Assembly (NCBI GenBank): GCA_951813065.1
Contig: CATOTH010000005.1
Coordinates: forward strand, 62,001-126,000
Direction: 5' to 3'
DNA length: 64,000 bases
Source: an uncultured Bryobacterales bacterium
GTDB lineage: Bacteria; Acidobacteriota; Terriglobia; Bryobacterales; UBA6623
Below are positions 29,602 to 56,851 of the stretch, piece after piece; positions within the stretch are counted from its first letter, which is position 1; each line of letters begins with the position of its first letter. The position numbers were made by a program, and so were the translations under genes. The notes under the pieces were generated by a model. That model had not been told where the DNA came from. It did not search any database and saw only the letters and a list, made by a program, of their open reading frames with translations.

Positions 29602-30483
29602 ATGCTGCGCAGCCTTTCATTTGGATCCAGTGTCAGGATCATCATCGTCATCGCGGTAGCTACGTCGGTCGGTGTGACGCTGCTGCTTACACTGGCACCT
29701 GAGCCCGACAGCCGGAAACTGCCTCCCCGGATTCCGTTCGCGCAGACCGCGCGGGTTTCGGCCGGATCGGGTCCCATGCCGGTGTACGGGGCCGGCACCG
29801 TGCGGCCAAGCGCGGAGATCGACATCGCCCCGCAGGTGGGCGGCAGGGTCATCTGGGTGGATACGGGGTTCCAGAGCGAGCGCCGGGTCGAAGACGGCGG
29901 GACGCTGCTCCGCATTGAGGAGGCGGACTACCTGTACCGCCTGCAGGAGGCCGAAGGCAGTCTCGCCTCGCATGCCGTGGAGGTGGTCGTCCCGCTGTCC
30001 GATCCCGATGCGTCGCTGATCCCCGGCCTGCGGGAACTCCAAGCCGGTGACGGAGAGGGAATTTACGTTTGGGACGGATACGTGGACCGCGTCGAGGCGT
30101 CGCTCGACGCACAGACCCGAACCGTCGGTGTGATCGCGCGTGTGTCGGCCCCGTTCAACTCAGGTGCCCCGGCGAGCGGATCCAGTGAGGCCGGCGCCCG
30201 GCCCCCGCTGCTGGTCGGCAAGTTCGTGGACGTAGAAATCGACGGCGTTTCACCGGAGGACTACTTCCGGACACCGCGCACGGCGCTGCAAACAGGCAAC
30301 GAGGTCTGAGCGGTGAGCGTGGCTGGCGTCGTGCGCATCGTTCCAGTCCAGGTGCTGCAGCGCGCGAACGATGAGGTATTCGTGACCGGTCCGCTCGAGA
30401 GTGGCCAGCGATTGGTCACGGGTGGAATTCAGTTCGCCACCGAGGGCATGTGCGTCCAGACCGGAACCGACCTAGTGCGATGA
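29602..30483 (+). pseudogene. RND periplasmic adaptor (copy A), internally deleted and nonsense-interrupted
   Basis: The N-terminal TM anchor and first beta strands (PSAEIDIAPQVGGRVIWVDT) match the intact adaptor at 46612. About 100 residues are missing in frame at about 29965-29975: the whole alpha-helical hairpin and half of the lipoyl domain. TGA at 30307-30309 replaces the Trp codon of EVWVVGG in copy B. After it the same frame continues (VRIVPVQVLQRANDEVFV to LVTGGIQFATEG) to 30483, overlapping the pump gene by ATGA. Without the hairpin it cannot reach an outer-membrane factor, so it is dead as an adaptor. It leads an operon with the pump, P450 and methyltransferase. Confidence 0.85.
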
Positions 30484-33400
30484 GTCCCGACGCAGATCCC
30501 GGGTCGGACGACGACCGCGAACGGTCCGGCCCGATCGCCTACATGGCGAGCAACGGCATTGCGGCCAATCTCCTGATGATGGGCATCATCGCGGCCGGCC
30601 TCGTGTCGCTGACGGGCCTCGATCGCGAAGCTTGGCCTACCACGCCATTTTACCATATCGAAGTCTCGGTGGCCTATCCCGGCGCCACGCCGGAGGAGAT
30701 CGAGGAGTCGATCATCGTAAAGATCGAGGACCAGGTCAGCGGCCTGGACGACGTGAGCGCGGTCAAGTCCGTAGCGTCTCAGGGCATGGCCTCCGTGCGG
30801 GTCCAAATGGATTTCCGTACGGACATGGATCGAGCCCTGGACGACATCGAATCTGCCGTCAATCGCATACAGTCTTTCCCGGCCGGCGCCGAACGTCCCC
30901 AGTTCCGGGAGATGGACAACCGCATGAGCATGATGCGGCTCATCGTCCACGGCGACATCTCCGAGCGCTCGCTGAAGGAACTTGCGTACCAGATCGAAGA
31001 CGACCTCACCGCGCTGCCCTCCGTGTCCCAGGTCGAAGTTAGCGGGGTCCGGAACTACGAGGTCTCTATCGAGCTGCCGCTTCACCGGCTGAGGGCCCTC
31101 GGACTCACGCTCACCGATGTCGCCAATGCGATCCGACGCAGTTCGCTGGACCTGTCGGCCGGCAGCATAAATACCCTGGAATCCCAAGTTCGGGTGCGGA
31201 CCCTCGGGCAGAGCTACGACCAGCAAGACTTCGAGGAGATCCCCCTCCTCAGCGGCCGCGACGGCACGGTCCTGCGCCTCGGAGATATCGCCAAGGTCCG
31301 CGACGGCTTCCAGGAAGCAGACCTGATTGTCCGCCATCAGAACCACCCCGCCCTTTTCGTCGAGGTCTACCGGGCCGGTGGCGAACAGGTGATGGATGTC
31401 GCCACCACCGTGCGCGAGCACATGACAAACGAGGTGATCCCGGCTTTGCCGGACGGCGTGGGTATCACCATGTGGAACGACGAATCCCAAGCCTACGAGG
31501 AACGCGCCAATCTTCTCCTGAAGAACGGTCTGCTGGGCCTGGTGCTGGTGGTGATCGCACTCAGCTTGTTTCTCCAAGTCCGGCTCGCCCTGTGGGTTGC
31601 CTTGGGCATCGCCGTTTCGGGCGCCGGAGCCCTCGCCGTCATGATGGCATTCGACGTGGCGATCAACACCATCAGCCTGTTCTCCTTCGTCCTCGCCATA
31701 GGGATCATCGTCGACGACGCCATCGTTGTGGCCGAGTACATTCAATTCGAACGCAATCGGGGGACGCCCGGGGTCGCCGCCGCGATCCGCGGCGTCAGGC
31801 GGATCAAGGTGCCCTTGACGTTCGCGGTCCTCACGTCGGTGGTGGCCTTCGTCCCGTTGCTGTTTATCCCGGGTGGCGTCGGCGACGTCTGGCGGGCCCT
31901 GCCGATCATCATGATCGCCATGCTGCTGGTTTCCTTGGTGGAATCTCTGCTGGTGCTGCCCAACCACCTGTCACACCTGCCCGGCCCGGAATGGGTTCCG
32001 ACCAATCCCTTCGACCGGTTCTTCTCGCGGCTCCAGAGTGGTGTTGACGCCCAGCTAAACCGGTTCGTGCGGGGGCCCCTGGACCGGGCCCTGCGGTTCG
32101 CCACGGACTGGCCCGAAGTGACGATGGCGGGTGCCGTCGCAATGCTCGTGCTGAGCATCTCCCTGCTGCCCGCGGGGGTCGTTCCCATGACGCTGGCCGA
32201 CGACGTGGAAGGCGATATCGCGACGGTCGTTTTGGAAATGCCCGATGGGGCCACCGCTTCGAGAACGTACGAAGTGGCGCAGGAGCTGGAGGCTGCGGGC
32301 CGCCGGGTCATCGAACGACTGTCTCGCAACCGGCCCGTGGATGCGCCACCGCTGCTGAGCGGCGTCACGGTGACCGTCGGACTGGGATCTAGACTCGAGG
32401 GCGGACTCAACCCGGAGCCCACCCTCAATCCGCAGGCCAATATCGCCACCATAGAGTTCAAACTCCTCGGCGCGCAGCAGAGACGGATCTCCACCGGAGA
32501 GGTCGTGCAGGCGTGGCGGGAGGAGGTGGGTGTTCTGCCCTACGTGCGCGGCATCACCTTCAGCGGCGAGATCTTCACACTCGGGAACCCGGTCGAGGCC
32601 GTACTGTCCCATCCCGACCCGGAGCGCCTCGCCCGGATCGCGGACTCGGTGGTAGCCGGACTCCACAGCGTGGAAGGCGTCTACGACATACGGTCGGATC
32701 ACGCCCGCGGCATCCCGGAGATTCAGTTGGAAATGCGCCCCGAAGCGCGGACCCTCGGTCTCACCCTGCAGGAGTTGGCGGGGCAGGTGCGGGCCGCTTT
32801 CTTCGGCGCGGAAGCTGTCCGAGTGCAGCGCGGCCGGGAAGAGGTCCGAGTCTACGTGCGCCTGCCCGAGGAAGAGCGGAGATCCATTACCGATATCGAA
32901 GGCTACCTGATCCGCACGCCGAGCGGGGGCGAGGTGCCGATCATCAGCGCGGCCGCGCTGAGCCAGGGCGTGTCGCCGTCGGCCCTCCGGCGCAGGGATG
33001 GCCAGCGCGTCGTCACCGTCACAGCGGATGTGGACGCCTCCGTGATCTCCAGCGACGAAGCCAACGATTTCCTGGCCGGTTCGATCCTCGCGGACCTGGT
33101 CGCGACGTTTCCGGACCTGACCTACACGTTCGGAGGTGAACAGCAGCAGCAACTGGAGTCCATCGGCGCGCTGTACCGTGGGTTCGCGGTCGCCCTGATC
33201 ATGATCTTTATGCTCCTCGCCATCCCACTCCGTTCATATGCCAAGCCGTTCATCATCATGGCCGTGATCCCTTTCGGGTTCATCGGCGTGATCTTGGGCC
33301 ACTGGATCCTGGGCGTGGCCCTGAGCGCCGTATCCTTCATGGGGATCTTCGGTCTCAGCGGGGTGGTGGTGAACGATTCCCTGGTCATGATCGACTTCAT

Positions 33401-33686
33401 CGACCAGAAACTCAGCGAGGGGGCCGCGCCGAAAACGGCGATCGTGGAGGGTGCCAAGGGACGCTTCCGTCCCATCATGCTCACTTCCCTGACGACGTTC
33501 CTCGGCTTCATGCCCCTGATCCTGGAGCGCGCAATCCAGGCCCAGTTCCTGATACCCTTCGCCGCGTCGCTCGGTTGCGGCATTCTCTTCACCACGGCTA
33601 TTCTCATGATGGTTGTTCCGGCGCTATACACCATGCACCTGAGTCTGAGGCTCTCGTGGCGCCGTTCCGGTGCGCGTGCCGCGTAG
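30480..33686 (+). CDS. RND efflux pump, inner-membrane subunit (copy A, intact)
   Basis: The 1068-residue pump has the AcrB/HAE fold. TM1 lies near residues 22-42; the first porter domain carries EVSVAYPGATPEEIEESIIV; TM4 has the proton-relay acidic pair in GIIVDDAIVVAEYIQFER. The second half has YTFGGEQQQQLESIGALYRG and FGLSGVVVNDSLVMIDFID, and ends ALYTMHLSLRLSWRRSG. The ATG at 30480 overlaps the adaptor stop (ATGA); a GTG at 30450 is also in frame. It has no lesions, unlike its paralogue at 47823. As part of the operon with P450 and sterol methyltransferase it probably moves a hydrophobic lipid or drug. Since its own adaptor is broken, the one at 46612 is the likely partner. Confidence 0.93.
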   Translation: MSPDADPGSDDDRERSGPIAYMASNGIAANLLMMGIIAAGLVSLTGLDREAWPTTPFYHIEVSVAYPGATPEEIEESIIVKIEDQVSGLDDVSAVKSVASQGMASVRVQMDFRTDMDRALDDIESAVNRIQSFPAGAERPQFREMDNRMSMMRLIVHGDISERSLKELAYQIEDDLTALPSVSQVEVSGVRNYEVSIELPLHRLRALGLTLTDVANAIRRSSLDLSAGSINTLESQVRVRTLGQSYDQQDFEEIPLLSGRDGTVLRLGDIAKVRDGFQEADLIVRHQNHPALFVEVYRAGGEQVMDVATTVREHMTNEVIPALPDGVGITMWNDESQAYEERANLLLKNGLLGLVLVVIALSLFLQVRLALWVALGIAVSGAGALAVMMAFDVAINTISLFSFVLAIGIIVDDAIVVAEYIQFERNRGTPGVAAAIRGVRRIKVPLTFAVLTSVVAFVPLLFIPGGVGDVWRALPIIMIAMLLVSLVESLLVLPNHLSHLPGPEWVPTNPFDRFFSRLQSGVDAQLNRFVRGPLDRALRFATDWPEVTMAGAVAMLVLSISLLPAGVVPMTLADDVEGDIATVVLEMPDGATASRTYEVAQELEAAGRRVIERLSRNRPVDAPPLLSGVTVTVGLGSRLEGGLNPEPTLNPQANIATIEFKLLGAQQRRISTGEVVQAWREEVGVLPYVRGITFSGEIFTLGNPVEAVLSHPDPERLARIADSVVAGLHSVEGVYDIRSDHARGIPEIQLEMRPEARTLGLTLQELAGQVRAAFFGAEAVRVQRGREEVRVYVRLPEEERRSITDIEGYLIRTPSGGEVPIISAAALSQGVSPSALRRRDGQRVVTVTADVDASVISSDEANDFLAGSILADLVATFPDLTYTFGGEQQQQLESIGALYRGFAVALIMIFMLLAIPLRSYAKPFIIMAVIPFGFIGVILGHWILGVALSAVSFMGIFGLSGVVVNDSLVMIDFIDQKLSEGAAPKTAIVEGAKGRFRPIMLTSLTTFLGFMPLILERAIQAQFLIPFAASLGCGILFTTAILMMVVPALYTMHLSLRLSWRRSGARAA

Positions 33687-33716
33687 CGGATCTCGTCTGC
33701 GGCGAGACGGGAACCG

Positions 33717-35363
33717 ATGACTGACATGGCGATAACGGCAGAGACGGTGGAGAGTTCGACGGCCGAACCCCTGAGTTTGGTCGACGAACTCATCCTGATT
33801 CATCTCGACGAGAAGGGAGGCTACTTCCATCAAGTGCCAGGCTGGCAAGTGAACTGCGCCGGCGTCGTCGTCGGAGTGCTGGCGGAACTCTCCTTCCGGT
33901 CGCGGCTCGACTCGGACCTTGCATCCCTGCCCGTCGTGGACCCGCCCGAAGCGGGCGATCCCGTCCTGGACCCCATCCTGAGGGAAATCGTGGACGCACG
34001 GGGCCAACGCACTGCCCGGTACTGGATCGAACGGCTTGCATCCCGTGCGGAGTCGATCATCGAAATGACTCTGGCGCGCCTGGTTGAACGGGAGATCCTC
34101 CAACGCCACGATGGCGAATTCTGGATGCCGGCTGCCACCGTCCTGCATGGGCCACAGTACGGGATGCCTGCGGAAGGTACACCCCAACAGTTCATCAAGG
34201 CGCGCATCGGCAAGGTTGTCTTCGCCGACGAGATTCCCGGCCACAGAGACATCGTCATTGCATGCCTCGTCAATTCGTGCGACGTCTTTCGTCTGATTCT
34301 TGCACTCGATGAGAAGGCAGAGGAGCGCATCAAGTACATCTGCCAGATGGACTTGATCGGTCGGGCCATTGCCGATGCGGTCTCCCGGAACCTCGACGGC
34401 CCGGCCCGTAGGTATTCCGCTCTTTCCAAGAAGATTCCGACGGTTCCGATGCGCCAGCTGCTGGCCAACCCGCATACCCGAGATGGCAACCTGAACACCT
34501 TGTTCGGGAACCTCCCGGAGGAGCACGGCCCGGTGTTCCGTGTCCACCCTCCCTTCTCGGAGCCCATGATCTTCCTGGCCGGACTCGAGACGAACCGCTG
34601 GGTGCACAAGCAGGGGAGCGCGTACCTGAGAACCGAGGACTACTTCAACCACTTCGAGGAGGTGTACGGTGCGGACGACGTCCTTCCCGCCTTGGACGGC
34701 AAGGAACGGGCCCTCAGCGTGCATATCGCCCGACTCCTGCCCAAGTTCAGGGTGAATACCCCGGGCATGAAACGCCGGGCGAGAGTCCTGGACACACTGA
34801 TGGAACGGGTGTTGCAAGGCCATACTTCCGCCCACCGGGCGGACAACCCGCGGAACCTATGGGACGATTCCGTTAGCCTGCACGCGAGCGACCCGCGGTT
34901 TCTCCCGGAGTCCAACCTGCTCTTCGCTTTTTCCGCAGCCTTGATTGCCAGCGTGTACCTCGGCGAAGCGTTCAGCCTCATGGTCTACGCGATGGCGTCG
35001 CGGCTGGACCTGTACGCCAAGATCCAAGCCGAAAAGGATGCCCTGTTCGCCAACGGCGATCCCGCGAAGGAGGACTTCACCCCCGCCAACATCGACGTGA
35101 CGCACCGCTTCCTGCCGTCGCGCAAGAAGCGTGACAGCCTCGGGTCCGCCCCGTACGAGCTGGGCACGCACAGGTGTCTCGGCACAGGGTGGATGGAGGT
35201 GCCCCTAGCGGTCAACCTGCTGATGCTGGCGCACCACTTCACGGTTGAGGTGTCGCCGGCGAAGTACGCGCGGGAACTCCGATTCAATCCGTTTCCGTCG
35301 ATGATGCCGAGCATGAAGCTGAAGTTCCGCATCTCGGAGCAGCGGCGCGAGTTGCCCGCGTGA
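33717..35363 (+). CDS. GPP34-cytochrome P450 fusion (copy A), P450 part degenerate
   Basis: The 548-residue product has a full N-terminal GPP34/GOLPH3-like domain (about 18-225; LVDELILIHLDEKGGYF, LPVVDPPEAGDPVLDPIL, ARYWIERLASRAE, LARLVEREILQRHDGEFWM). The P450 part still has the haem loop YELGTHRCLG (Cys487). Compared with the copy at 51104, two in-frame deletions remove about 75 residues (C-helix HxxxR through about E-helix, near 34715) and about 60 residues (ExxR and following strands, near 35120). Lacking ExxR it should not fold as an active P450. The frame is nevertheless open throughout, so a non-catalytic role for the GPP34 part is possible. Its stop overlaps the GTG of the methyltransferase by four bases. 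Confidence 0.88.
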   Translation: MTDMAITAETVESSTAEPLSLVDELILIHLDEKGGYFHQVPGWQVNCAGVVVGVLAELSFRSRLDSDLASLPVVDPPEAGDPVLDPILREIVDARGQRTARYWIERLASRAESIIEMTLARLVEREILQRHDGEFWMPAATVLHGPQYGMPAEGTPQQFIKARIGKVVFADEIPGHRDIVIACLVNSCDVFRLILALDEKAEERIKYICQMDLIGRAIADAVSRNLDGPARRYSALSKKIPTVPMRQLLANPHTRDGNLNTLFGNLPEEHGPVFRVHPPFSEPMIFLAGLETNRWVHKQGSAYLRTEDYFNHFEEVYGADDVLPALDGKERALSVHIARLLPKFRVNTPGMKRRARVLDTLMERVLQGHTSAHRADNPRNLWDDSVSLHASDPRFLPESNLLFAFSAALIASVYLGEAFSLMVYAMASRLDLYAKIQAEKDALFANGDPAKEDFTPANIDVTHRFLPSRKKRDSLGSAPYELGTHRCLGTGWMEVPLAVNLLMLAHHFTVEVSPAKYARELRFNPFPSMMPSMKLKFRISEQRRELPA

Positions 35364-36415
35364 GCCGCCACCAAATGCGGCTGGGCGATCTGTCGAAATC
35401 GCTGAGGGATGCGTGCCACGGATCGGACGTCGCGCGTCGCGTCCGGCACTTCAACGGCTGGGTTGACCGGGCGGTGCCGGAGGCCGGAGGCGCGGGCGGC
35501 TACGCCCACGCGGAAACGGTCAGGGACTACTACGAGCTTTGCAACGCCTTCATGGTGTGGGGTTGGGGTGAATCCCTGCACTTCGCGCCCCTTACGCCCC
35601 ATGAGAGTCTGGAGGAGTCCAAGGTCCGGCACCAGCGCGCGATGATCGCCCAGCTGGAGTTGGAACAGGGCATGACGGTGATCGACGTTGGTTGCGGGGT
35701 TGGCGGCCCCATGCGCCGCGTCGTCCGCGAGACCGGCGTCAGGGTCGTGGGTATCAACATCAATGAGGTCCAGTTGGCGCAAGCCAAGAAGTTGAACGCT
35801 GAGGCGGGGCTCGATCACCTGGTGGAGTTAGAGAGGTGCAGCTTCACGGACATGAGCGCCATCGAGGACGACACCTTCGACCGGGGTTACGCCATAGAGT
35901 CAACGTGCCACGCGCAGGACAAGCAACGCGCCTTCGCGGAGATATTCCGCGTGCTGAAACCGGGTGCCCTGCTCTGGGGTCAGGAAATGTGTCTGACGGA
36001 CCGGTTCGATCCGAACGACGGTCGGCATCGGGCCGTCAAGCAGAGTCTCATGCGCGGTATCGCGCTGTACGACATCGCCACGTTCGGGGAAGTGGATCAC
36101 GCGCTCGAAGCCGCGGGATTTCAAGTCATTGAGGGAAGGGACTGGGACGTTCAGGAGGGACCCTCCACGCCTTGGTATCAACCCATGGAGAGTCGCCACG
36201 GGACGTTGGGGCACGCCCTCCGAAGGCTTCCGTGGGGCCGCAAGGCGGCCATCGCGGGATCGAAGCTGGCCGAGCTTCTGCGGCTCTTTCCGAATGGCTC
36301 GGCGGAAGTCGTTCGGCTCCTCGATCGAACCGCGGAGGCGTATGTTGCGGGCGGCAAGACGGGTATCTTCACGCCGCTTTACTGTTTCCTGGCCCGCAAA
36401 CCTTCTCAGCCCTGA
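35360..36415 (+). CDS. Sterol C-24 methyltransferase (Erg6/SMT family)
   Basis: The 351-residue SAM-dependent methyltransferase matches Erg6/SMT end to end. Sterol-binding region I is AFMVWGWGESLHF (63-75; yeast YEYGWGSSFHF). The SAM motif is VIDVGCGVGGPMRR (107-120), region III is YAIESTCHAQ (177-186), and TPWYQPM is at 270-276. The C-terminal sterol-MT domain ends GGKTGIFTPLYCFLARKP (331-348), almost the plant/fungal sequence. The family transfers methyl to the C-24 double bond of sterol side chains. It starts with GTG, overlapping the P450 stop (GTGA), so it is cotranslated with the GPP34-P450 and pump. Bacterial SMTs are uncommon. Cycloartenol-, lanosterol- or zymosterol-like acceptors and any repeat alkylation cannot be decided from sequence. 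Confidence 0.94.
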   Translation: MSRHQMRLGDLSKSLRDACHGSDVARRVRHFNGWVDRAVPEAGGAGGYAHAETVRDYYELCNAFMVWGWGESLHFAPLTPHESLEESKVRHQRAMIAQLELEQGMTVIDVGCGVGGPMRRVVRETGVRVVGININEVQLAQAKKLNAEAGLDHLVELERCSFTDMSAIEDDTFDRGYAIESTCHAQDKQRAFAEIFRVLKPGALLWGQEMCLTDRFDPNDGRHRAVKQSLMRGIALYDIATFGEVDHALEAAGFQVIEGRDWDVQEGPSTPWYQPMESRHGTLGHALRRLPWGRKAAIAGSKLAELLRLFPNGSAEVVRLLDRTAEAYVAGGKTGIFTPLYCFLARKPSQP

Positions 36416-41190: not shown

Positions 41191-42549
41191 ATGCCGAGAA
41201 GGGTTGCCATTATCGGTGGGGGAGTCTCGGGGCTGGGGGTGGCCTGGGCACTGTACCAGCACGGCGCTCGATTCGATTTTCGACTGTTCGAAGCGCAAGC
41301 TCAGGTCGGGGGTAATGCCGTCACCGCCGATATGCCGCAAGCGGATGGAACCTCGATTCCGTTTGATATTTCCGTCACCGCGTGCATTCCCTCCGTTTAC
41401 CATCACATCCTTCTGATCATGCAGCAACACGGTATCGAGTTGGTCGATACCAGGTTCAGTTACAGCGTGAAGTATCGCGGCGGCGTCTACGCTCATGACT
41501 TTGACTCCGACATCAGAAGGCAGTTGCAACCGGAAATCGAGAGATTCCAGAAGGTCCTGAGACATCTAAAGCGGTTCGGCCGGCTCACCAGATCCAGGTC
41601 CAGACTGCTCAGTGCGCTCAACCCGTTCAACTACGTCAGTATGGGGACGGTTCTAAACTTGGGCAGGTTCTCCGGGGATTTCAGATACAAGATCCTGAAG
41701 CCCATGTTCGTCAACTTCCTGATGGCCACGAACGTGTTCGACATGCCCGCGTCCCTGTTTGCTCGGTATCTGGAGTTCTTTGACATCGAAACCGCAACGC
41801 CGATGCAAACCTGGGACCGTGGAACGCGGCGTATCTACGAAAGCCTTTCGGCTCCCTTCCGGGACAAGATCTACCTTGAGCGACCGGTTCGAAAAGTGTA
41901 TCGACGTCGCTCGGAAGTGGTCGTGGAGGACGAAGACGGAAGGACAGAGACGTTTGATGACGTCGTCTTCTCGTGCAACGCGAATCAAACGCTAATGATT
42001 CTGGACAAACCGACATTCCTGGAGGGCTTTCTTCTCTCGTCGATACGTTACGAGAGTGAACTGCACAACCATACGGTCGTTCACTCGGACGGCTCGATTC
42101 TTCCGGACAGCGATGTCAAGCCACTCGCCACCCGAAGCAACCATATCGAGCAGTACGGTGTGCGACCTGATAATTATGAAATCACCTATATCATGCACAA
42201 CCAGCAGCCTTGGGCGAGTCGATCGGACAAGCCATGCCTGGTGACCTACAACCCGATCAGCTGCATCGATGAAGGCAAGATCATCAAGAAGTGGTGGTTT
42301 CAGCACATCGTGCACGATGTGCCTCACGTGGCCTTTCTGGTCCATTTGTTTCGCTTCGTTCAGGGCAAGAGGCGAACTTGGCACTGTGGCGCCCATACTC
42401 TGATCAACAGCCAGGAGACCTGTTTCGTTTCCGGCCTCGTTACGGCGCGACAGATCGGAGCGGACTATCCATTTCAGGATTCTGAAGCAAGGAAGTGGTT
42501 TAATTTCTACGGGCGCATGATGTACGGTTGGCGCTTCAGAAAGGCGTAG
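41191..42549 (+). CDS. FAD-dependent oxidoreductase (COG2907-type, amine-oxidase-like fold)
   Basis: The 452-residue flavoprotein starts with the dinucleotide-binding motif RVAIIGGGVSGLGVAWAL. FRLFEAQAQVGGNA follows, then the FAD-fold closing region (DDVVFSCNANQTLMIL) and the C-terminal WHCGAHTLINSQETCFVSGL motif typical of COG2907 proteins. That family is often encoded beside cyclopropane-fatty-acid-synthase-like SAM methyltransferases that alkylate double bonds. The presence of an SMT, which also alkylates a double bond, suggests that it reduces or isomerises the methylated product, for example a 24(28)-methylene group; this is inference. It has its own promoter region and no overlap with neighbours. 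Confidence 0.85.
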   Translation: MPRRVAIIGGGVSGLGVAWALYQHGARFDFRLFEAQAQVGGNAVTADMPQADGTSIPFDISVTACIPSVYHHILLIMQQHGIELVDTRFSYSVKYRGGVYAHDFDSDIRRQLQPEIERFQKVLRHLKRFGRLTRSRSRLLSALNPFNYVSMGTVLNLGRFSGDFRYKILKPMFVNFLMATNVFDMPASLFARYLEFFDIETATPMQTWDRGTRRIYESLSAPFRDKIYLERPVRKVYRRRSEVVVEDEDGRTETFDDVVFSCNANQTLMILDKPTFLEGFLLSSIRYESELHNHTVVHSDGSILPDSDVKPLATRSNHIEQYGVRPDNYEITYIMHNQQPWASRSDKPCLVTYNPISCIDEGKIIKKWWFQHIVHDVPHVAFLVHLFRFVQGKRRTWHCGAHTLINSQETCFVSGLVTARQIGADYPFQDSEARKWFNFYGRMMYGWRFRKA

Positions 42550-46611: not shown

Positions 46612-47826
46612 ATGCACAGAGGAATCGGCTACTTGCTTGCAGCTGCCATTCTGGGCGGCTCCGTCTGGCTGGCAACCTACCTGGTGTCCTTGGCACCCGA
46701 ACCTGAGCGTAGCGAGCCACCGCCCCCAATCCCGTTTGCGCGAACCGCGCCGGTCGTGGCCGGCTCAGGTGCCATTGCTGTGCACGGAACCGGAACAGTG
46801 CGGCCCAGCGCGGAAATCGACATTGTCCCGCAGGTCGGCGGCCGCGTCGTATGGACGGAGCCCGGATTCCAGAGCGGGGGGCGCGTCGAGGCGGGCCAGC
46901 CGATCTTCCGTATCGAGGATGCCGACTTCGTGAATCATGTGCGGGAAATCGAGGTGGCTATCGAAGCCCGGCAGGCGGAACTTGCTGTGATTCAGGAGGA
47001 GGCCGCGTTCGCCCGCAGCGAATTCGAGAAGTACTCCCGCCTGCGGCAAGAAGCCGGTTCTACGGTGTCCGAGGCAGGTCCCCTAGCCCTCCGAGAACCC
47101 CAGCTGAAGGCGGCCCAAGCCGCGCTGGACCGCGAGGGTGTCCGGCTGGCCGCTGCCAAGCTGGCGCTCTCCCGCATCGAAGTGCGGGCCCCCATGGATG
47201 GCTATGTGCTTGACGAGTCGCTGGAAACGGGGCAGCTTGTGACCGCTGGCCAGTCCGTCGGACGGCTGATCGCCGCCGACGCTGTCGAGGTGATCGTGCC
47301 GCTGTCCGACGCCAGCGCAGCCTTGATTCCGGACCTGTGGAAGCTTCGGGCTGGAGACGTCGAGCGACAAGTGGCCGCACGCGTAATTGCCAGGTACGGC
47401 GACGGAAGCTACGCCTGGAAGGGATACGTGGACCGGACCGAGGTGTCGCTCGACGAGCGGGCACGGACGATTGACGCGATCGTGCGCGTGCCCAACCCCT
47501 TTTCCCCCGGCACCCGGGTGACCGGGACCGGTGGCTCCGGCAGCCCCCCGCTGTTGGTGAGCAAGTTTGTGGAATTGGAGATCCAGGGCGTTGCGCCGAA
47601 GAGCTATTTCCGGGTGCCGCGACCGGCATTGCGGCCTGGCAACGAGGTTTGGGTGGTGGGCGGCGACCGGAAGGTGAGTATTGTCCCAGTGCGTGTCCTG
47701 CAGCGCGTCAACGATGAAGCCGTTGTAGTCGGCGCTCTTGAAGAGGGGCAATTGGTCGTCACGGGCGGAGTTCAGTTTGTCACCGAAGGGATGGTTGTAC
47801 AGACGGGGGCCGGCCTGGCGCAATGA
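46612..47826 (+). CDS. RND periplasmic adaptor (membrane fusion protein, copy B, intact)
   Basis: The 404-residue adaptor has an N-terminal membrane anchor (YLLAAAILGGSVWLATYLVS), a first lipoyl half (PSAEIDIVPQVGGRVVWTEP), an alpha-helical hairpin (about 108-185; REIEVAIEARQAELAVIQEE through LKAAQAALDREGVRLAAAKL), a second lipoyl half (IEVRAPMDGYVLDESLETG) and beta-barrel and membrane-proximal domains ending VTEGMVVQTGAGLAQ. It should bridge an RND pump to an outer-membrane factor. Its stop overlaps the pump B start (ATGA), but that pump is a pseudogene, so it probably serves the intact pump at 30480 and the NodT-type factor at 56852. Confidence 0.92.
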   Translation: MHRGIGYLLAAAILGGSVWLATYLVSLAPEPERSEPPPPIPFARTAPVVAGSGAIAVHGTGTVRPSAEIDIVPQVGGRVVWTEPGFQSGGRVEAGQPIFRIEDADFVNHVREIEVAIEARQAELAVIQEEAAFARSEFEKYSRLRQEAGSTVSEAGPLALREPQLKAAQAALDREGVRLAAAKLALSRIEVRAPMDGYVLDESLETGQLVTAGQSVGRLIAADAVEVIVPLSDASAALIPDLWKLRAGDVERQVAARVIARYGDGSYAWKGYVDRTEVSLDERARTIDAIVRVPNPFSPGTRVTGTGGSGSPPLLVSKFVELEIQGVAPKSYFRVPRPALRPGNEVWVVGGDRKVSIVPVRVLQRVNDEAVVVGALEEGQLVVTGGVQFVTEGMVVQTGAGLAQ

Positions 47827-50800
47827 GCCAGAACGAACAACAACCAGCGGACACAGGCGAACCGATCGCCTACATGGCGAACAATCGTGTCGCTGGGGGG
47901 CTTGGAGCGACAGGCCTGGCCAATCGTCCCCTTCAATACCGTTGAAGTGTCCGTGGCCTATCCGGGTGCCACGCCCGAGGAGGTGGAGGGGTCGATCGTC
48001 GTCGAGATCGAGGAGCAGGTCGAGGCGCTGGCGGATGTCAAGGCGGTCGAGTCCTTGGCGGCACCGGGGATCGCATCGGTCCGGGTCGAATTGAATACCG
48101 GGGCGGACATCGACGAGGCCATGGACAAAATCGAGTCCGCCGTCGGCCTCATCCACTCGCTTCCCGGCGCAGCCGAGCGTCCCAAGTTCAGGCAAATGAA
48201 CAACCCCGCACGGACATGATGCGCCCGATCGTCTTCGGCGACATCCCCGAGCGCTCGCTGAAGGAACTGGCCCACCAGATCGAAGACGAATTGGGGACGC
48301 TCCTCAGCCTGTCCCATGTCGAGACGACCGGGACTAGAAACTACGAGATCTCGATCGAAGTGTCGCTCGCCCGATTGCGCTCCCTCGGACTGACGCTCGA
48401 CGATGTCGCGGACGCGGTCCGCCACAGTTCCCTCGACCTTTCGGCCGGCAGAATCGACACGCGGGAGGCCGAGGTACACGTCCGGACCATCGGCCAGAAC
48501 CACGATCAGCTCGATTTCGAGGCGATCGTCGGTATCGCCCGGGAAGACGGCACGGTCGTGCGCCTCGGAGGTATCGCCGACGTGCGCGATGCCTTCCAGG
48601 ACACCGACCTGATCTTCCGCCACCAAGATCGGCCGGCAGGCTTCGTGGAGGTCTACCTGGCCGAGGGCGAGCAGGTGATGAATGTCCCCGAAGCCGTCCA
48701 CAAGTACACCGCGAACGTGATTACTCCATCCTTGCCTGATGGCGTCGGGATCACCCTCTGGAACGACGACTCCCAGACCTACTCGGAACGTCTCGACCTC
48801 CTCGTCAGAAATGGTCTTTTGGTCTCATCCTGGTGCTCATCTCGCTGGCCCTGTTTCTTGAGATTCGGGTCGCGCTGTGGGTCGTCGCCGGCCTGATCAC
48901 CTCGGGCCTCGGGGCCTTGGCCGTGATGCTGGTGCTCGACCTCGCCATCAACACGATTTCACTGTCCGCATTCGTCCTGGGCATCGGCATCATCGTCGAC
49001 GACGCCATTGTCGTGGCCGAGCACATCCACTACGAACGCATGAAGGGCGTGCCGGGAGTCGTGGCGGCGATCCGCGGCGCGCAACGGATCAAGGGTGCGT
49101 TGATCTTCGCGGTTCTCACTTCAGTGGCGGCGTTCACACCACTGCTCTTCATCCCCGGCGGCATCGGAGAAGTGTGGACCGCGTGGCCAGTGATCATCAT
49201 CGGCATGCTGCTGATCTCGCTGGTCGAGGCGCTCCTGATTCTGCCGAGCCACCTGTCCCATTTGCATGGACCGGAGTGGGTGCCCACCAATCTCGGGGAT
49301 CGGTTCTTCTCGTCCATCCGAGGTCTTGTGGATCGTCTGCTATCCGCCTTTGTGAACGGCCCCGTGGATCGCGCGTTGCGCTTCGCGACGGATCAACCCG
49401 CCGTCGTGGTAGCGGGGGCGATCGGCCTGCTCGTAGTCAGCCTGTCCCTGGTGCCGGCAGGCATTGTCCCGACGACCTTCGCCGACGTCGTGGAAGGCGA
49501 CTTTGTCACGGCCAATCTCGAAATGCCGGACGCGACACCCGCAGAACGGACCCTCGAGGTGGCTATGTAACTGGAGCAGGCCGGACGGCGAGTTCTGGAT
49601 CGCCTGAACCAGGACAGGCCGGACGGGGCGCCGGCGCTGCTGTCGGGCTCGACCGTAACCGTCGGCGAGAGACCTCGCGTGGAGAGGGGTGGGCTCGACC
49701 CAACCCCCACCGTGAATCCGCAGGCCAACATCGCCACCGTCGAATTCAAGCTCTTGAGTGCCCAGGAACGGGACTTGTCCACAATCGCCGTCATACAGGC
49801 CTGGCGGGAGAAGGTCGGGATCCTCCCTTACGTCCGGGGGATCGCCTTCAGCGGGGAGGTCATCAATCTCGGCCGCCCCGTGGAGGCTGTGCTGTCGCAC
49901 CCGGACCCGACGCACCTGAACGAATTTGCGGACTCGGTCGTCGACGGCCTCCGCACCGTGGCAAGCGTCTTCGATGTGAGGTCCGACCATACGCCGGGCG
50001 TCAGGGAGATTCAGCTATCGTTGCGGCCGGAGGCGCGAACGCTCGGCCTTACGGTCGAGGAACTGGCAAAGCAGGCGCGGGCGGCGTTCTTCGGCGTGGA
50101 GACGCTGAGAGTACAGCGTGACAGGGAGGAGGTCCGGGTCTACGCCCGACTCCCCGACCAAGAGCGCGATTCGATCACTGATGTCGAGGGCTACCTGATC
50201 CGCACACCGTCGGGCGGTGAGGTGCCGCTGAGCCACGTGGCATCGATGAGCATGGGCACTTCGCCTCCAGCAGTCCGGCGCAAGGACGGTCAGCGGGTGG
50301 TCACGGTAACGGCAGATGTGGACGAGAACGTGATTTCCGGCGGGGAGGCAAATGACATCCTCGAGAACACGATCCTTGCGCTACTGATCGCATCCGCCCC
50401 TGGGCTGACCTACTCCTTCGGAGGCGAACAGCAGCAGTTAGAGTCGCTGGACGCCCTGTATCGCGGCTTCGCGCTGGCCATGCTTGCCATCTTCGCGCTG
50501 TTGGCCATTCCCCTGAGGTCCTACCTCAAACCGTTCATCGTGATCGCCATCATTCCGTTCGGCCTTGTGGGCGTCGTTCTCGGCCACCTCGCGCTGGGAG
50601 TCGCCACTAGTGCCGCATCGTTCATGGGCTTCTTCGGACTCAGCGGAGTCACCGTCAACGATTTGCTGGTCATGATCGACTTCGGGAGGGCGCCACTCCG
50701 AAGAAGGCGATCGTCGAGGGCGTCAAAGGCCGCTTCCGTCCCATCCTGCTGACCTCGGTGACCACCTTTCCCGGCTTCACTCCGCTCATTCTCGAACGCG

Positions 50801-50958
50801 CCATCCAGGCCCAGTTCCTGGTCCCCTTCGCCGTCTCGCTCGGGGTCGGCATCATGGTCACAACCGGGATCCTGATACTGCTTGTGCCGGCACTGATGGC
50901 TATCTATCTGCGGGTCAACTCGCGTCGCGTGGCAGCGGCGGCCGCCCGGTTTCACTGA
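47823..50958 (+). pseudogene. RND efflux pump inner-membrane subunit (copy B), multiply disrupted
   Basis: Nearly the full pump sequence is present but spread over three frames. Lesions versus copy A: loss of TM1 with frame change near 47890; frameshift near 48210 (MNNPARTD vs MDNRMSMMRL); frameshift near 48815; nonsense TAA at 49568-49570 (QELE replaced); deletion with frameshift near 50685 (MIDFIDQKLSEGAAP region). Conserved blocks remain, including GIIVDDAIVVAEHIHYER and YSFGGEQQQLESLDALYRG. Loss of TM1 and five separate lesions rule out a functional pump. Confidence 0.92.
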
Positions 50959-51103
50959 CCCCCCAGTCGGGCGCCAAGCCCGTCGCCCTTGAACCGGACC
51001 CACGTTCGCGGGGCAAGGGTGCGCAAGCATTCTCGACGAGGTCCGCCGCGGCAGGCCTTGACCTACCTTTTCCCGACGGGGACGGCGATGGACGTTGGCG
51101 TGC

Positions 51104-53125
51104 TCAGACGGTATTCGTGACTTGAGCGACGCGGAACTTCATCTTCTTGTTGGGGGCGGCTGTCGGGAACGGATTGATGGCAAGTTTGTAGTTCTCCGGC
51201 AGCACGTCGAGCTTTACGTGGTACGCGATGAGCAGGAGATTGACGGCCATCTGAAGTTCGACCCAGCGACTTCCGAGGCAAGTGTGCGTGCCTAGGCCAT
51301 AGGGGGCGTAGGCGCCCGGCGTCACATGCTCTGCCCGATCCCACAAGTAACGGTCGATGTCGAATTTCAGTGGATCCTTGAACAGGTCGGGGGCGTAATG
51401 CGATGCAGTCTGGCACACCAATAGTCGGGTCTTGGGAAGCAGTTCGAAGCCTTCGACGATGCACGGGTTCATGACCGTCCTCAACTGCCAGGGAATCACG
51501 GGGTACAAACGTTGGGACTCCAGGCAGAGGCGGTGAGTGACATCGATGGCCTCGAGGGTGAACTCCTCCGCTTTCGGTTCACGACCGCCGCCGAAGAGCG
51601 CCTCGGCTTCTCGATGGATCCTCGAGTACACATCCGGGTGCCGCACCATGCAATAGACTGCGAAGCCGAGCGCGCTGCCGAGATAGATACTGGCGACCAT
51701 TGCCGCCACAAACGGGAACCTGATGTCCGTTTCCGGAAGGAACTGCGGGTCGTTTCGATGGAGTTCGAGAAATGCGTCCGCAAGATCTCTTGGCTTCCCC
51801 TTCCGCTGCGCCGGCGTGTGCGATGCCTGGATCGCTTCGTGGAGTTCGAGAACGCGCTTGCGCGCACGCTTCATCCTCGGCGTCTTCAGCATGAATTTTG
51901 GCAGCGCGCCCTGAACCTCGGTGACAAGCGCCCGATGTTCATAGGCAAGCAGTTCGTCGACGTAGTGGCTGCAATCCACTCCGATCGTCAGGCCCGAGAC
52001 CTGACGGCTCATGTGGTTCTGGAAGGTCTTGGTGACCCGGAAAACGTCACCTTCGCTCCATGAACCGATGGATTGCTTGCAGTGGGAGATCAATTCCGGT
52101 AGCCGTCGCGCAAGCGCGGCACGGGAATAGGCGCTCTGCAGCGACTTGCGCATCTTGTAGTGTTCCGCGCCATCCATGCTTGGTAGGGTGCGGGATGCGC
52201 CGAACACCCGTTCGAGACCCTCGATATAGTCCTTCGAGCGAAGGTAGAACCGACCATGCCTGTTGACCCACTGATTGGTTTCTGGCCCAATCAAGGCAAC
52301 CACGGTCTCGTTGGCCATAGTGAAGGGAGCCTGAACGACCGGTCCGTACTTCTGGAAGATGCCGTACATGGCCTTTGGAATATTGCCCGTACGGAAGTCA
52401 CGCTGTCGCAGGATGTCGATGAAACTGAGCTTCGGGATCGGTTTGGGTTGGAGAACACGGCGGGTCTTCGGTTTGACGGAGCTCTCCCGGACTGCGCTGG
52501 CAACCGACCGCCCGACAAGATCGAGCTTGGCGACCGTCTGGATCCGCTCAAGCTTGGCCTGGTAGTCTTCGGGCGAGAGCACCAGCTTGAACCCGTCGCA
52601 TGTGTGCATCAAAGCGACGAGAATGGCGTCGCGCGGATCCGGGATGATGTCGTCCAGGATGACGCTCAGGACTCTCGCTTTGGCTTCCTGGCGGATCGTG
52701 CTGTCGGAGGCGGGATAGCTTCCCGAACGTGAGACGTGGCTCGAGAGCGTCCAGAATCCGCCGCTCTCGTGTTCGAGAATCCCCCTCTCGACTAAGCGGT
52801 CGAGCGTGACTGTGACGATTTCCTCGGAACGGGCCGCGTTTCGTTCTACCCAGTATTGCGTCTCCGAGTTCTCCTGGGAATTGGCGATTTCCTCAAGCGT
52901 CGGGTCAAGCAGACTGTCTCCGGTTGGACTGGAATCAATCACAAAGAGCGCATCCAAATCGGTGTCGATGCGACTCTCCAGCGCAAGATCGGCGATTACG
53001 GCACCTGCCATGACACAGGAGAAATCCCAGTTCGGAACCATTTCAAGGTAGCCGCTCTGTTCGTTGAGCATGAGCAGGATCAGCTCTTCGGCAAGGCGTA
53101 CTGGAGACTCGACAGTTGTGCTCAT
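51104..53125 (-). CDS. GPP34-cytochrome P450 fusion (copy B, complete)
   Basis: The 673-residue fusion has a GPP34/GOLPH3-like domain (about 8-225; RLAEELILLMLNEQSGYLEM, FVIDSSPTGDSLLDPTLEE, TQYWVERNAARSEE, TLDRLVERGILEHESGGFW) and a full P450 (about 240-665). P450 marks are the C-helix HYKMR, the I-helix region AAMVASIYLGSALGFAVY, ExxR as ESQR (536-539), FDIDRYLWDR and the haem loop YGLGTHTCLG with Cys616. The I-helix lacks the usual acid-Thr pair, implying unusual oxygen activation or substrate-assisted chemistry. GOLPH3 binds phosphoinositides and enzymes at membranes; here the domain may dock the P450 at the membrane near its lipid substrate. No ferredoxin gene is adjacent. It faces the Rieske gene divergently. 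Confidence 0.92.
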   Translation of the reverse strand: MSTTVESPVRLAEELILLMLNEQSGYLEMVPNWDFSCVMAGAVIADLALESRIDTDLDALFVIDSSPTGDSLLDPTLEEIANSQENSETQYWVERNAARSEEIVTVTLDRLVERGILEHESGGFWTLSSHVSRSGSYPASDSTIRQEAKARVLSVILDDIIPDPRDAILVALMHTCDGFKLVLSPEDYQAKLERIQTVAKLDLVGRSVASAVRESSVKPKTRRVLQPKPIPKLSFIDILRQRDFRTGNIPKAMYGIFQKYGPVVQAPFTMANETVVALIGPETNQWVNRHGRFYLRSKDYIEGLERVFGASRTLPSMDGAEHYKMRKSLQSAYSRAALARRLPELISHCKQSIGSWSEGDVFRVTKTFQNHMSRQVSGLTIGVDCSHYVDELLAYEHRALVTEVQGALPKFMLKTPRMKRARKRVLELHEAIQASHTPAQRKGKPRDLADAFLELHRNDPQFLPETDIRFPFVAAMVASIYLGSALGFAVYCMVRHPDVYSRIHREAEALFGGGREPKAEEFTLEAIDVTHRLCLESQRLYPVIPWQLRTVMNPCIVEGFELLPKTRLLVCQTASHYAPDLFKDPLKFDIDRYLWDRAEHVTPGAYAPYGLGTHTCLGSRWVELQMAVNLLLIAYHVKLDVLPENYKLAINPFPTAAPNKKMKFRVAQVTNTV

Positions 53126-53663: not shown

Positions 53664-54737
53664 ATGCAGGCAAGGCGAATCGAGCGGAGCACCATCTCGT
53701 CGCTCCCACCGTTTCCCGAGGGCTGGTTCTTCGTCGCCACCCGTCAATCGATCCTGAAGGAAAAGCTGATTCAGAAGACTTGGCTGGGCGAAGACATCAT
53801 TGCCTGGTGCGACGGCGAAGGCCGCATCTGCGTGGCCGACGCGGTGTGCCCGCATCTGGGCGCCGACCTTGGGCCTGCAGGCGGAGCAGTGGTGCGCAAT
53901 GGCTGCCTTGTCTGTCCGTTTCACGGCTTCGAGTACGACGCAACCGGCCAATGTGTCGCCACGCCCTTCGCCCCAGCACCGAAGTCCGCGAAGCTGAAGG
54001 TGTACGAGACGCGGGAACTTCTGGACATGGTCTTTGCCTGGTGGGGAATCGACGGACGGCCGGCGCAATGGAACCTTCACGCTGACCCGCCGGTCGGGCC
54101 CGAGTGGAGCGAATTGGAATTCCGGTCGGTCCGGTTTGCCGGCCATCCCCAGGAAACGACCGAGAATTCGGTGGACCTGGCCCACCTGCGATATGTGCAC
54201 GGATACGACAACGTGGGCCGGGTCGGTCCGGTATCGGTAAACGGAGCGTTTCTCCAGAGCTGCTTTGACTTCAGGCGCAGCCAGTGCGTCGCCGGAATCG
54301 TGGACATCGTGTTCGATGTCTCTGCCATCACCGAAATCTATGGACTGGGTTACTCATTCGTCAACATCCGCGAGCACTCCATCGGCATGGATTCGCGCCT
54401 GTGGGTCCTCGCCACCCCTGTGGACGGCACGCTCATCGAGGTGACACTGGTTGGGCAGGTGCGAGAAATGCGGAAACCGAAGCGGCCGATCGTGGGCTTG
54501 AGATTCCTCCCGCTGAGCCTGCGTGCCCGGATGATGAACAAAGTCATCTTGTCGGCGCAGAAGCGCGACGTTCTTCAGGATGTGGTGATCTGGGGACGGA
54601 AGCAGTACCAGTCCCGACCACGGCTCTGCCAGTCCGACGGCGAGATCGGAATGTTTCGTCGCTATTGCTCGCAGTTCTATTCGGATCTTTCGGATACCGG
54701 CCAGGAAGTGCCCGAAAGACGGGCCGTTCCGGTATAA
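53664..54737 (+). CDS. Rieske non-haem iron oxygenase, alpha subunit
   Basis: The 357-residue protein binds a [2Fe-2S] Rieske cluster through C62-P-H64 and C84-x2-H87 (VCPHLGADLG and LVCPFHGFEYD). Its mononuclear iron site is in ENSVDLAHLRYVHGY (D171, H174, H179). The length, a single alpha-type subunit with no beta subunit gene, and the VCPHLGA...CPFHGF pattern are like the monooxygenases that act on sterols and steroids (KshA, DAF-36/Neverland, SdmA-type). It could hydroxylate, desaturate or demethylate the ring system. No reductase gene is adjacent. The assignment to steroid substrates is inferred from the family and the neighbouring SMT. Confidence 0.88.
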   Translation: MQARRIERSTISSLPPFPEGWFFVATRQSILKEKLIQKTWLGEDIIAWCDGEGRICVADAVCPHLGADLGPAGGAVVRNGCLVCPFHGFEYDATGQCVATPFAPAPKSAKLKVYETRELLDMVFAWWGIDGRPAQWNLHADPPVGPEWSELEFRSVRFAGHPQETTENSVDLAHLRYVHGYDNVGRVGPVSVNGAFLQSCFDFRRSQCVAGIVDIVFDVSAITEIYGLGYSFVNIREHSIGMDSRLWVLATPVDGTLIEVTLVGQVREMRKPKRPIVGLRFLPLSLRARMMNKVILSAQKRDVLQDVVIWGRKQYQSRPRLCQSDGEIGMFRRYCSQFYSDLSDTGQEVPERRAVPV

Positions 54738-55944: not shown

Positions 55945-56124
55945 CGGGACCGCGGCGTCCGTCAGGCACGCTATCCAAACGAGCCTCGATGGCGTTGGGA
56001 TCCGATCTGGCGTGAAGACAGAACCCGGAACGCGGCGGGTGTTCTCGCGAACGCAGTCCGCCCCCAGGAACTCGAAGGGCGGCGCCACCAGAGGGCCATG
56101 ATGCCAAGCAGGCCATTTCAGCGG

Positions 56125-56168
56125 TTGACAGCGCCACGGCGAGCCCATATCCTTCAAACAAACGTTTG
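56125..56168 (+). promoter_or_regulatory. TetR-gene promoter with overlapping palindromic operator
   Basis: A consensus -35 TTGACA (56125-56130) and a -10 TATCCT (56148-56153) are separated by exactly 17 bases. A perfect 10-base palindrome CAAACGTTTG (56159-56168) covers the expected transcription start and the TTG/GTG start area. This is a typical autorepression layout, with transcripts leaving little or no leader. Confidence 0.72.
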
Positions 56169-56849
56169 GATGAAGCCGTGCCCCAGGCCGTGGAAACCAA
56201 GGACCTGATTCTCGACGCCGCGGAGCTGCTGTTCAGCGAGAACGGAGTCGAGGGTGTGTCCCTGCGTGCGTTGACCAGGGAAGCGGGCGTCAATCTCGCT
56301 TCCGTCCACTACCACTTCGGTTCGAAGGAGGCGGTCGCTCGAGCCGCGTTCTGCCGCCGGGTTCGCCCGATCAATGCCGAGCGTCTCGAGATGCTAGACA
56401 GAATCGAGCTTGAGGGTGCCGCGGACGTCGAGGGCATCCTGACCGCTCTGTATTCGCCCGTCCTCCGACTCGCACGGTCGCCTGTCCACGGCAGAAGGTT
56501 CATGAGACTCTGCGCGCGCTTCTACAGCGAACCGGGGAAGTACCTGGAATCGGCATTCGAGGAAGAGTTCTCCGAGGTCATCATGCGGTTTGAGCGCGCC
56601 TTGCAACGAGCCCTGCCCGAGCTGGCGCAACCGGACCTGCGACGGCGCATGCACTTTGCAGTCGGCGTGATGGTGCACACGATGCTCGATTCAAACCGCA
56701 CTCGGCAATGGACCGCCGGAGCATGCGATCCTTTAGACACGGACGGGACGCTCGATGCCATGGTGCGGTTCGTCGCCGCCGGCTTCCGCGCCACAGCGAA
56801 GGGCAGCACCCTCGCCGCAGGGATTCAGGGAACGACCCAGGCAGCCTAA
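56166..56849 (+). CDS. TetR-family transcriptional regulator
   Basis: The roughly 225-residue protein has the N-terminal helix-turn-helix LILDAAELLFSENGVEGVSL then RALTREAGVNLASVHYHFGS, the standard TetR recognition region. The C-terminal ligand domain with FARFY-like helices (RRFMRLCARFYSEPGKYLES) resembles the AcrR/CerR-type group with a TetR C-terminal domain. The start is TTG at 56166 or GTG at 56178. The stop TAA is two bases before the outer-membrane factor ATG, so it almost certainly controls that gene. A lipophilic ligand such as the pump substrate is plausible. A palindrome in its own promoter suggests autoregulation. Confidence 0.88.
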   Translation: MDEAVPQAVETKDLILDAAELLFSENGVEGVSLRALTREAGVNLASVHYHFGSKEAVARAAFCRRVRPINAERLEMLDRIELEGAADVEGILTALYSPVLRLARSPVHGRRFMRLCARFYSEPGKYLESAFEEEFSEVIMRFERALQRALPELAQPDLRRRMHFAVGVMVHTMLDSNRTRQWTAGACDPLDTDGTLDAMVRFVAAGFRATAKGSTLAAGIQGTTQAA

Positions 56850-56851
56850 AG

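What the first reader, a model, noticed from the sequence alone, without database searches (positions are those of the whole stretch)
29602..36415. Bacterial sterol C-24 methyltransferase in one operon with a P450 fusion and an RND pump
The protein at 35360 carries every SMT landmark: sterol-binding region I (WGWGESLHF), DVGCGVGGPMRR, YAIESTCHA and the sterol-MT C-terminal domain ending GIFTPLYCFLARKP. Its GTG overlaps the P450 stop, the pump lies 30 bases upstream of the P450, and the adaptor overlaps the pump. Coupling C-24 alkylation of a sterol to RND export in one bacterial operon is, to my knowledge, not an established system. It would matter for sterane biomarkers and for symbiont-made sterols.
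Basis: partly seen in the sequence, partly recalled or inferred. Interest (0 to 1): 0.92.

Follow-up and report, generated by a model that had tools for sequence, protein, structure and literature searches.

The report
Mobile sterol-methylating cassette of sponge symbionts
This bacterium, probably a sponge symbiont, carries part of a gene cassette that seems to chemically remodel sterols it cannot make itself and move them with a membrane pump; related cassettes have spread among many unrelated symbiont phyla, and the methylating enzyme has an altered active site, so which position of the sterol it methylates is an open and testable question.

Summary
The SMT-like gene (35360-36415), an intact RND pump (30450-33686) and their operon-like packing are real. 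Three details change. (1) The SMT keeps the Sterol_MT_C domain and SAM motifs but not every landmark: Tyr81-Glu82 of Region I (yeast numbering) is Met-Val; Met81, Gln108, Gln223 and Met225 are invariant in 86 relatives, so C-24 chemistry is not secured. (2) The adjacent P450 is a GPP34-P450 fusion with deletions that remove ExxR, and the adaptor is truncated; both look dead. Intact copies, a KshA-type Rieske oxygenase and an OEP lie at 46.6-58.3 kb. (3) The genome (an acidobacterium by rpoB) has no squalene epoxidase or OSC-type cyclase, so de novo synthesis is unlikely. Over 80 related loci in at least nine phylum-level lineages, nearly all apparently sponge MAGs, the SMT travels with the fusion P450 (70), Rieske (60), a FAD oxidase (43) and exactly one of three RND-superfamily transporters (60; never two). 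The window's SMT is 91% identical to a Gemmatimonadota one but about 65% to its congeners': lateral transfer. Bacterial SMTs and laterally spread sterol clusters in sponge symbionts are published; I found no description of this cassette or SMT clade.

The parts
29602..30309 (+). Degenerate RND periplasmic adaptor (MFP'), 235 aa: hairpin deleted, in-frame TGA where relatives have Trp; the frame then stays open to about 30483
   Evidence: Alignment with 405-aa relatives; three-frame translation; TIGR01730 31 bits against cutoff 95
30450..33686 (+). Intact AcrB-type RND permease, 1078 aa
   Evidence: PF00873 538 bits; 83-88% identical to many relatives in sponge MAGs; dN/dS 0.23
33717..35363 (+). 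Degenerate GPP34-cytochrome P450 fusion, 548 aa, two in-frame deletions, no ExxR
   Evidence: Pfam; alignment; ExxR in 59 of 60, this one missing; dN/dS 0.66 against 0.29 for intact copies
35360..36415 (+). SMT-A: SAM methyltransferase with sterol-methyltransferase C-terminal domain and remodelled Region I
   Evidence: PF08498 58 bits; 91% aa identity to L060; motif table; dN/dS 0.34
41191..42549 (+). FAD-dependent amine-oxidase-like flavoprotein, 452 aa, conserved cassette member
   Evidence: PF01593; within 10 kb of SMT-A in 43 of 80 loci, up to 90% identity; nearest solved structure LkcE
46612..47826 (+). Intact RND adaptor of the lineage's own cassette, 404 aa
   Evidence: HlyD_3; 71% to the same-genus G004 copy
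47823..50928 (+). Second RND permease, broken: several frames, in-frame stops
   Evidence: Four ACR_tran fragments; tblastn pieces in three frames with two stops
51104..53125 (-). Intact GPP34-cytochrome P450 fusion, 673 aa (ExxR and heme Cys present)
   Evidence: PF05719 127.6 and PF00067 117.6 bits; 76% to G004 and G017 copies
53664..54737 (+). Rieske oxygenase with KshA_C catalytic domain, divergent from the P450
   Evidence: PF00355, PF19298; KshA is the nearest solved structure; 60 of 80 loci
56708..58282 (+). Outer-membrane efflux protein (OEP), possible third pump component
   Evidence: PF02321 126 bits

Best explanation
The region is a composite of two copies of one laterally moving sterol-remodelling cassette. 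An imported copy (SMT-A, intact RND; dead adaptor and P450) sits beside the lineage's own copy (intact adaptor, GPP34-P450, KshA-type Rieske, OEP; dead RND). Together they leave about one complete set. Shown: gene content, deletions, lateral origin of the SMT, linkage across phyla, absence of squalene epoxidase and OSC matches in this genome. Inferred: the cell takes up sterol from its host or neighbours; the Rieske and P450 oxidise it, the flavoprotein changes an oxidation state, SMT-A adds a SAM methyl group, an ERG4/ERG24-like reductase coded elsewhere (G000:C1) removes a double bond, and the RND pump moves the product to the outer membrane or out of the cell. Which carbon is methylated is not determined.
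For: Sterol_MT_C over its cutoff. SMT-A joins SMT-B and Erg6, stem support 100. In Nitrospirota loci SMT-A lies beside SE-OSC fusion, ERG24 and SMT-B genes. An ERG4/ERG24 reductase occurs in the SMT-A genomes of the genus (5 of 5; also in 1 of 6 without), adjacent to a second Rieske/KshA paralogue in this and other genomes. Cassette linkage: P450 70, Rieske 60, flavoprotein 43 of 80. Transporter rule: 29 AcrB-type, 23 MMPL, 8 second MMPL type, none with two; both MMPL types carry a sterol-sensing-domain match. No squalene epoxidase; own cyclase is SHC type, DTDDTA. SMT-A also in G001, G015 and G017, which show no full cyclase. HGT.
Against: No biochemistry. RND pumps of the AcrB type carry many substrates. 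KshA-type Rieske enzymes and P450s act on non-sterols too. The lack of squalene epoxidase rests on one Pfam model and a 95.6% complete genome. Sterol uptake was not identified. Region I changes could mean a non-sterol substrate.
Confidence: 0.6

Rival explanations
1. Canonical C-24 sterol methyltransferase, acting on acquired desmosterol-like sterols; the pump exports 24-alkyl sterols. This is a special case of the best explanation.
Against: Met81, Gln108, Gln223 and Met225 invariant and Val82 in 78 of 86 SMT-A, while C-24 chemistry is held to need the aromatic Region I Y81EYGWG86 (PMC6997595). I could not see whether any tested SMT belongs to this clade.
Confidence: 0.35
2. SMT-A methylates another position, for example C-4 of 3-oxo sterols as nematode 4-SMT (STRM-1) does, within a set that resembles nematode sterol processing (DAF-36 Rieske, P450, dehydrogenase, 4-SMT).
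For: Nematode 4-SMT also lacks the Region I aromatic signature and uses diet-derived sterols; the cassette holds a KshA-type Rieske, a P450 and a flavoprotein.
Against: Analogy only; no nematode sequence could be aligned here; Trp85 and an aromatic residue at 83 are kept in SMT-A.
Confidence: 0.2
3. The substrate is not a sterol but a hopanoid or other terpenoid lipid.
For: This genome has a squalene-hopene cyclase; the active site is remodelled.
Against: SMT-A is present in G001, G015 and G017 (93-99% complete), which show no full SHC; linkage with ERG24, SE-OSC and KshA-type genes.
Confidence: 0.15
4. Steroid catabolism or detoxification: Rieske/KshA and P450 begin degradation and the pump expels toxic steroids; the methyltransferase is incidental.
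For: KshA is the closest solved Rieske; steroid degradation genes were surveyed in metagenomes of many environments in a paper that also treats sponges (PMC5790920, listing and abstract only).
Against: P450 and Rieske sit beside the methyltransferase in 70 and 60 of 80 loci; the ring-degradation genes were not searched for.
Confidence: 0.1
5. The pump is a generic drug efflux system that happens to lie beside the SMT.
For: AcrB-type family; NCBIfam names are multidrug efflux.
Against: 60 of 80 loci have exactly one RND-superfamily transporter of three types, often directly in line with SMT or P450 (MMPL-SMT 15, RND-P450 15, RND-SMT 8).
Confidence: 0.1

Closest known systems
Sterol 24-C-methyltransferases of uncultured bacteria (Brown et al. 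2023, PMC10070321)
   Same: SMT superfamily with Sterol_MT_C, found in sponge-symbiont metagenomes, some in sterol gene clusters
   Different: SMT-A clade has an invariant Met81/Gln108/Gln223/Met225 signature; this genome has no SE or OSC match; the paper's main text does not mention P450 or transport. Whether any tested enzyme is SMT-A is unknown to me.
Clusters of steroid genes (ERG24-CYP51-LSS) in Ircinia symbionts (Kelly et al. 2022, PMC9531527)
   Same: Sterol genes in ten phyla of sponge symbionts with lateral transfer; SMT noted as enriched and as a flanking gene
   Different: Those are de novo clusters; the cassette here is GPP34-P450, KshA-type Rieske, flavoprotein, SMT-A and transporter, mostly in genomes without a strong squalene epoxidase match (38 of 50). 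In five loci the cassette lies close to an SE-OSC gene.
BstA/BstB/BstC sterol transporters of Methylococcus capsulatus (PMC10942540)
   Same: RND-superfamily protein tied to sterol genes
   Different: BstA is an MMPL/HpnN-type protein; the window's pump is AcrB-type with adaptor. MMPL proteins take its place in Chloroflexota cassettes.
Nematode 4-SMT (STRM-1) with DAF-36 (PMC6997595)
   Same: SMT relative without the Region I aromatic signature, acting with a Rieske oxygenase on acquired sterols
   Different: Animal pathway; homology to SMT-A beyond the superfamily not tested.
KshA, 3-ketosteroid 9-alpha-hydroxylase
   Same: Rieske plus KshA_C domains; nearest solved structure
   Different: The sequence match covers mainly residues 16-179; function here unknown.

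Membership tests
SMT superfamily (Sterol_MT_C proteins) | Class I SAM-binding domain plus PF08498 C-terminal domain over cutoff | tested here: met
   58 bits against 21.7; SAM motif DVGCGVGGP
SMT superfamily (Sterol_MT_C proteins) | Closer to other SMTs than to small-molecule methyltransferases | tested here: met
   Aligns full length with SMT-B and Erg6; non-SMT solved structures match only the SAM domain and no NCBIfam small-molecule model reaches its cutoff. No tocopherol methyltransferase row was available for the tree.
Canonical sterol C-24 methyltransferase (24-SMT) | Aromatic/acidic Region I Y81-E82-Y83-G84-W85-G86 | tested here: not met
   M-V-W-G-W-G in the window; Met81 in 86 of 86 SMT-A. 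Yeast sequence recalled from memory, checked only by its Pfam profile.
Canonical sterol C-24 methyltransferase (24-SMT) | SAM-dependent alkylation at C-24 | not testable with these tools
   Needs an enzyme assay
De novo bacterial sterol pathway | Squalene epoxidase and oxidosqualene cyclase in the genome | tested here: not met
   No PF08491 match in G000; own cyclase SHC type; genome 95.6% complete
Functional cytochrome P450 (copy at 33717-35363) | K-helix ExxR and heme-binding Cys | tested here: not met
   ExxR deleted, Cys kept
Functional cytochrome P450 (copy at 51104-53125) | K-helix ExxR and heme-binding Cys | tested here: met
   ESQR and GLGTHTCLG present
Tripartite RND efflux system | Permease, adaptor and outer-membrane factor | tested here: inconclusive
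   Intact permease (imported), intact adaptor (own copy, 13 kb away) and OEP are all in the window but from different copies
BstA sterol transporter | MMPL/HpnN-type RND, NCBIfam NF045600 | tested here: not met
   Window pump has no BstA match; an MMPL counterpart in L118 matches weakly, 30 bits against 1400

The most novel reading that the evidence does not exclude
SMT-A is a new sterol methyltransferase type that methylates a position other than C-24 (ring A or a terminal side-chain carbon). It acts inside a mobile cassette with which many unrelated sponge symbionts remodel acquired host sterols and move the product with interchangeable RND-superfamily transporters. It could thus be a bacterial source of unusual sponge sterols.
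Probability: 0.27. Interest if true: 0.88.

Novelty: new variant of a known kind. Interest (0 to 1): 0.68.

Why it matters
Alkylated steranes serve as fossil markers of sponges and algae. A methyltransferase cassette shared laterally by many symbiont phyla, mostly in genomes without squalene epoxidase, would mean that sponge sterol profiles are partly set by bacteria that modify host sterol rather than make it. It also gives a defined gene set with which to ask which unusual sponge sterols are bacterial, and a test case for sterol transport by RND-superfamily proteins, where three transporter types replace each other next to the same enzymes.

Tried and rejected
De novo sterol synthesis in this genome: rejected (no SE match, SHC-type cyclase). 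Hopanoid methylation: disfavoured (SMT-A genomes without SHC). Small-molecule methyltransferase: rejected. A single fixed operon: rejected; order and strand vary among relatives. Chance neighbourhood: rejected. The 16S gene could not name the organism; rpoB placed it with Acidobacteriota. In that tree three rows (L087, L094, L079) seem to have been read in a wrong frame and are to be ignored. Literature: no paper found on a GPP34-P450 fusion in bacteria. A search for MAG-series names in papers gave nothing useful. Supplementary tables of PMC10070321 were not available, so its tested SMTs could not be mapped onto the SMT-A and SMT-B clades. No structure was predicted, since it would not settle regiochemistry.
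Full report
CHECK OF THE OBSERVATION. 35360-36415 encodes 351 aa with a class I SAM domain and the Sterol_MT_C domain, 58 bits against a cutoff of 21.7; it is the only such gene in the 5.59 Mb, 95.6% complete genome. 30450-33686 is a complete AcrB-type RND permease. SMT start and P450 stop overlap, and pump and P450 are 30 bases apart. The adaptor ORF ends at 30309, 140 bases before the pump, because of a TGA where relatives have Trp; past it the frame stays open into the pump start. It also lacks about 100 residues of the hairpin region.

THE ADJACENT P450 IS A WRECK. 33717-35363 is a fusion of a GPP34 (Golgi phosphoprotein 3) domain with a cytochrome P450. Against full-length relatives of about 675-700 aa it has two in-frame deletions, the second of which removes the K-helix ExxR. 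All 59 other aligned members keep ExxR. Its dN/dS against L060 is 0.66, against 0.29 between two intact copies, while the SMT (0.34) and pump (0.23) look constrained.

A SECOND HALF OF THE CASSETTE. Testing which window genes recur near SMT relatives drew attention to 41191-42549 (FAD amine-oxidase-like) and to 46612-58282: an intact adaptor, an RND gene broken into several frames, an intact GPP34-P450, a Rieske oxygenase with the KshA_C domain, and an OEP. The intact P450 and adaptor are 71-77% identical to those of relatives in the same genus or family, but about 30-55% to the degenerate copies. The simplest reading is two cassette copies with reciprocal decay: imported pump and SMT kept, own adaptor and P450 kept. 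That the products of the two copies work together is inference. Long-read errors could explain the frameshifts in the second RND gene, not the large deletions.

WHERE IT COMES FROM. An rpoB tree places this genome with Acidobacteriota (100/99), sister to Acidobacteria MAGs that also carry the cassette. Yet the SMT is 91% identical (93% over about 1.3 kb of DNA) to that of a BD2-11 MAG (L060), which rpoB puts in Gemmatimonadota, and only 64-66% to the SMTs of its own genus and family. The SMT tree pairs the window with L060 (98) among Gemmatimonadota and other Acidobacteriota, far from its congeners. Lateral transfer is the plain explanation. The sponge origin of this genome is inferred from its relatives; its source is not recorded in the data I saw.

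HOW WIDE. The best 80 loci in genome contigs are 65-91% identical, and by record names nearly all belong to sponge MAG series (reading series names as sponge hosts is partly from memory, though sponge species that fit several of them are listed in PMC8163846). By titles and rpoB they span at least nine phylum-level lineages. Several lie on contigs of 1-4 Mb, so misbinning cannot explain all. Within the order, SMT-A, the fusion P450 and the Rieske gene are confined to the window's family among 61 genomes. In a phylum-wide sample SMT homologues at E below 1e-50 occur in 15 of 396 genomes and 4 of 211 genera.

THE CASSETTE AND THE TRANSPORTER RULE. Within 10 kb of SMT-A: GPP34-P450 in 70, Rieske/KshA in 60, flavoprotein in 43, ERG4/ERG24-like reductase in 12 of 80 loci, many of them cut by contig ends. 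Sixty loci hold an RND-superfamily transporter and each holds one type only: AcrB-type 29, MMPL 23, a second MMPL type 8. Both MMPL types carry sterol-sensing-domain matches over the Pfam cutoff. The types follow lineage (MMPL in Chloroflexota), so the 60 are not independent, but three types meeting the same enzymes argues that transport belongs to the function.

WHY STEROLS. In Nitrospirota the cassette lies beside SE-OSC fusion, ERG24 and a second SMT (SMT-B). The relative G003 has SMT-B with ERG2, an SE-OSC fusion, ERG24 and a Rieske gene in one locus. In this genome an ERG4/ERG24-like reductase lies at G000:C1:698306-699376 with a second Rieske/KshA gene directly beside it (699534-700541); the pair is conserved in G004, G009 and G010. 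Within the genus the reductase is found in all five SMT-A genomes and in one of six others.

NO DE NOVO ROUTE HERE. No squalene epoxidase match in G000 or in six other SMT-A genomes of the family. The cyclase has the SHC motif DTDDTA, while the G003 fusion has the OSC motif VTDCTA. Of 50 SMT-A genomes elsewhere, 12 have a strong squalene epoxidase match, nearly all in long frames typical of SE-OSC fusions, a fusion already known (PMC10070321). Most SMT-A bearers therefore seem to depend on acquired sterols, with the caveat of MAG completeness.

WHAT THE SMT DOES. Against yeast Erg6 (sequence recalled from memory; its Pfam profile is as expected) SMT-A keeps Trp85, His90, Asp125, Glu195, His199 and the C-terminal FTP, but Tyr81 is Met in 86 of 86, Glu82 Val in 78, Glu108 Gln, Tyr223 Gln and Trp225 Met in all. 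SMT-B keeps Tyr or Phe at 81, Glu82, mostly Tyr223, and an aromatic residue at 225. Cation-pi chemistry of C-24 methylation is assigned to the aromatic Region I, and nematode 4-SMT, which lacks it, methylates C-4 of 3-oxo sterols (PMC6997595). Two aromatic positions remain in SMT-A, so C-24 is not excluded. I put sterol or steroid as substrate at about 0.75 and C-24 specifically at about 0.35.

VERDICT. Bacterial SMTs, sterol-cluster HGT in sponge symbionts and RND-superfamily sterol transport each have precedents; their combination with a GPP34-P450 fusion, a KshA-type Rieske and a remodelled SMT clade in one mobile cassette I did not find described in the library searched.

Noticed in passing
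L033 (G003:C72) 255-9449: Relative in the same genus with a compact sterol locus: SMT-B, ERG2/Sigma1R, 1207-aa squalene epoxidase-OSC fusion, ERG4/ERG24 and a VanA-type Rieske oxygenase.
   Followed up: partly
L054 (G000:C1:698306-700541): ERG4/ERG24-like reductase beside a second KshA-type Rieske gene, far from the window; the pair is conserved in congeners.
   Followed up: partly
window 51104-53125: The intact fusion P450 lacks the usual I-helix acid-alcohol pair (YLGSAL; Asp in 50 of 59 aligned copies), which may mean unusual chemistry.
   Followed up: no
L163 (G004:C9:51715-55962): rpoB lies in an open frame of 2946 codons, perhaps an RpoB-RpoC fusion.
   Followed up: no
L038, L035, L039 beside SMT-A: In congeners SMT-A is flanked by a polysaccharide lyase 8 protein, a beta-lactamase-family protein and an AMP-binding enzyme (Pfam run on L038 only).
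   Followed up: no
L060 and L105 record labels: Some labels disagree with rpoB: BD2-11 (L060) is filed by NCBI ranks under Pseudomonadota but groups with Gemmatimonadota; Latescibacterota L105 groups with Gemmatimonadetes L110.
   Followed up: partly
window 38827-40722: 631-aa ORF without any Pfam match between SMT and flavoprotein; not part of the conserved cassette.
   Followed up: no
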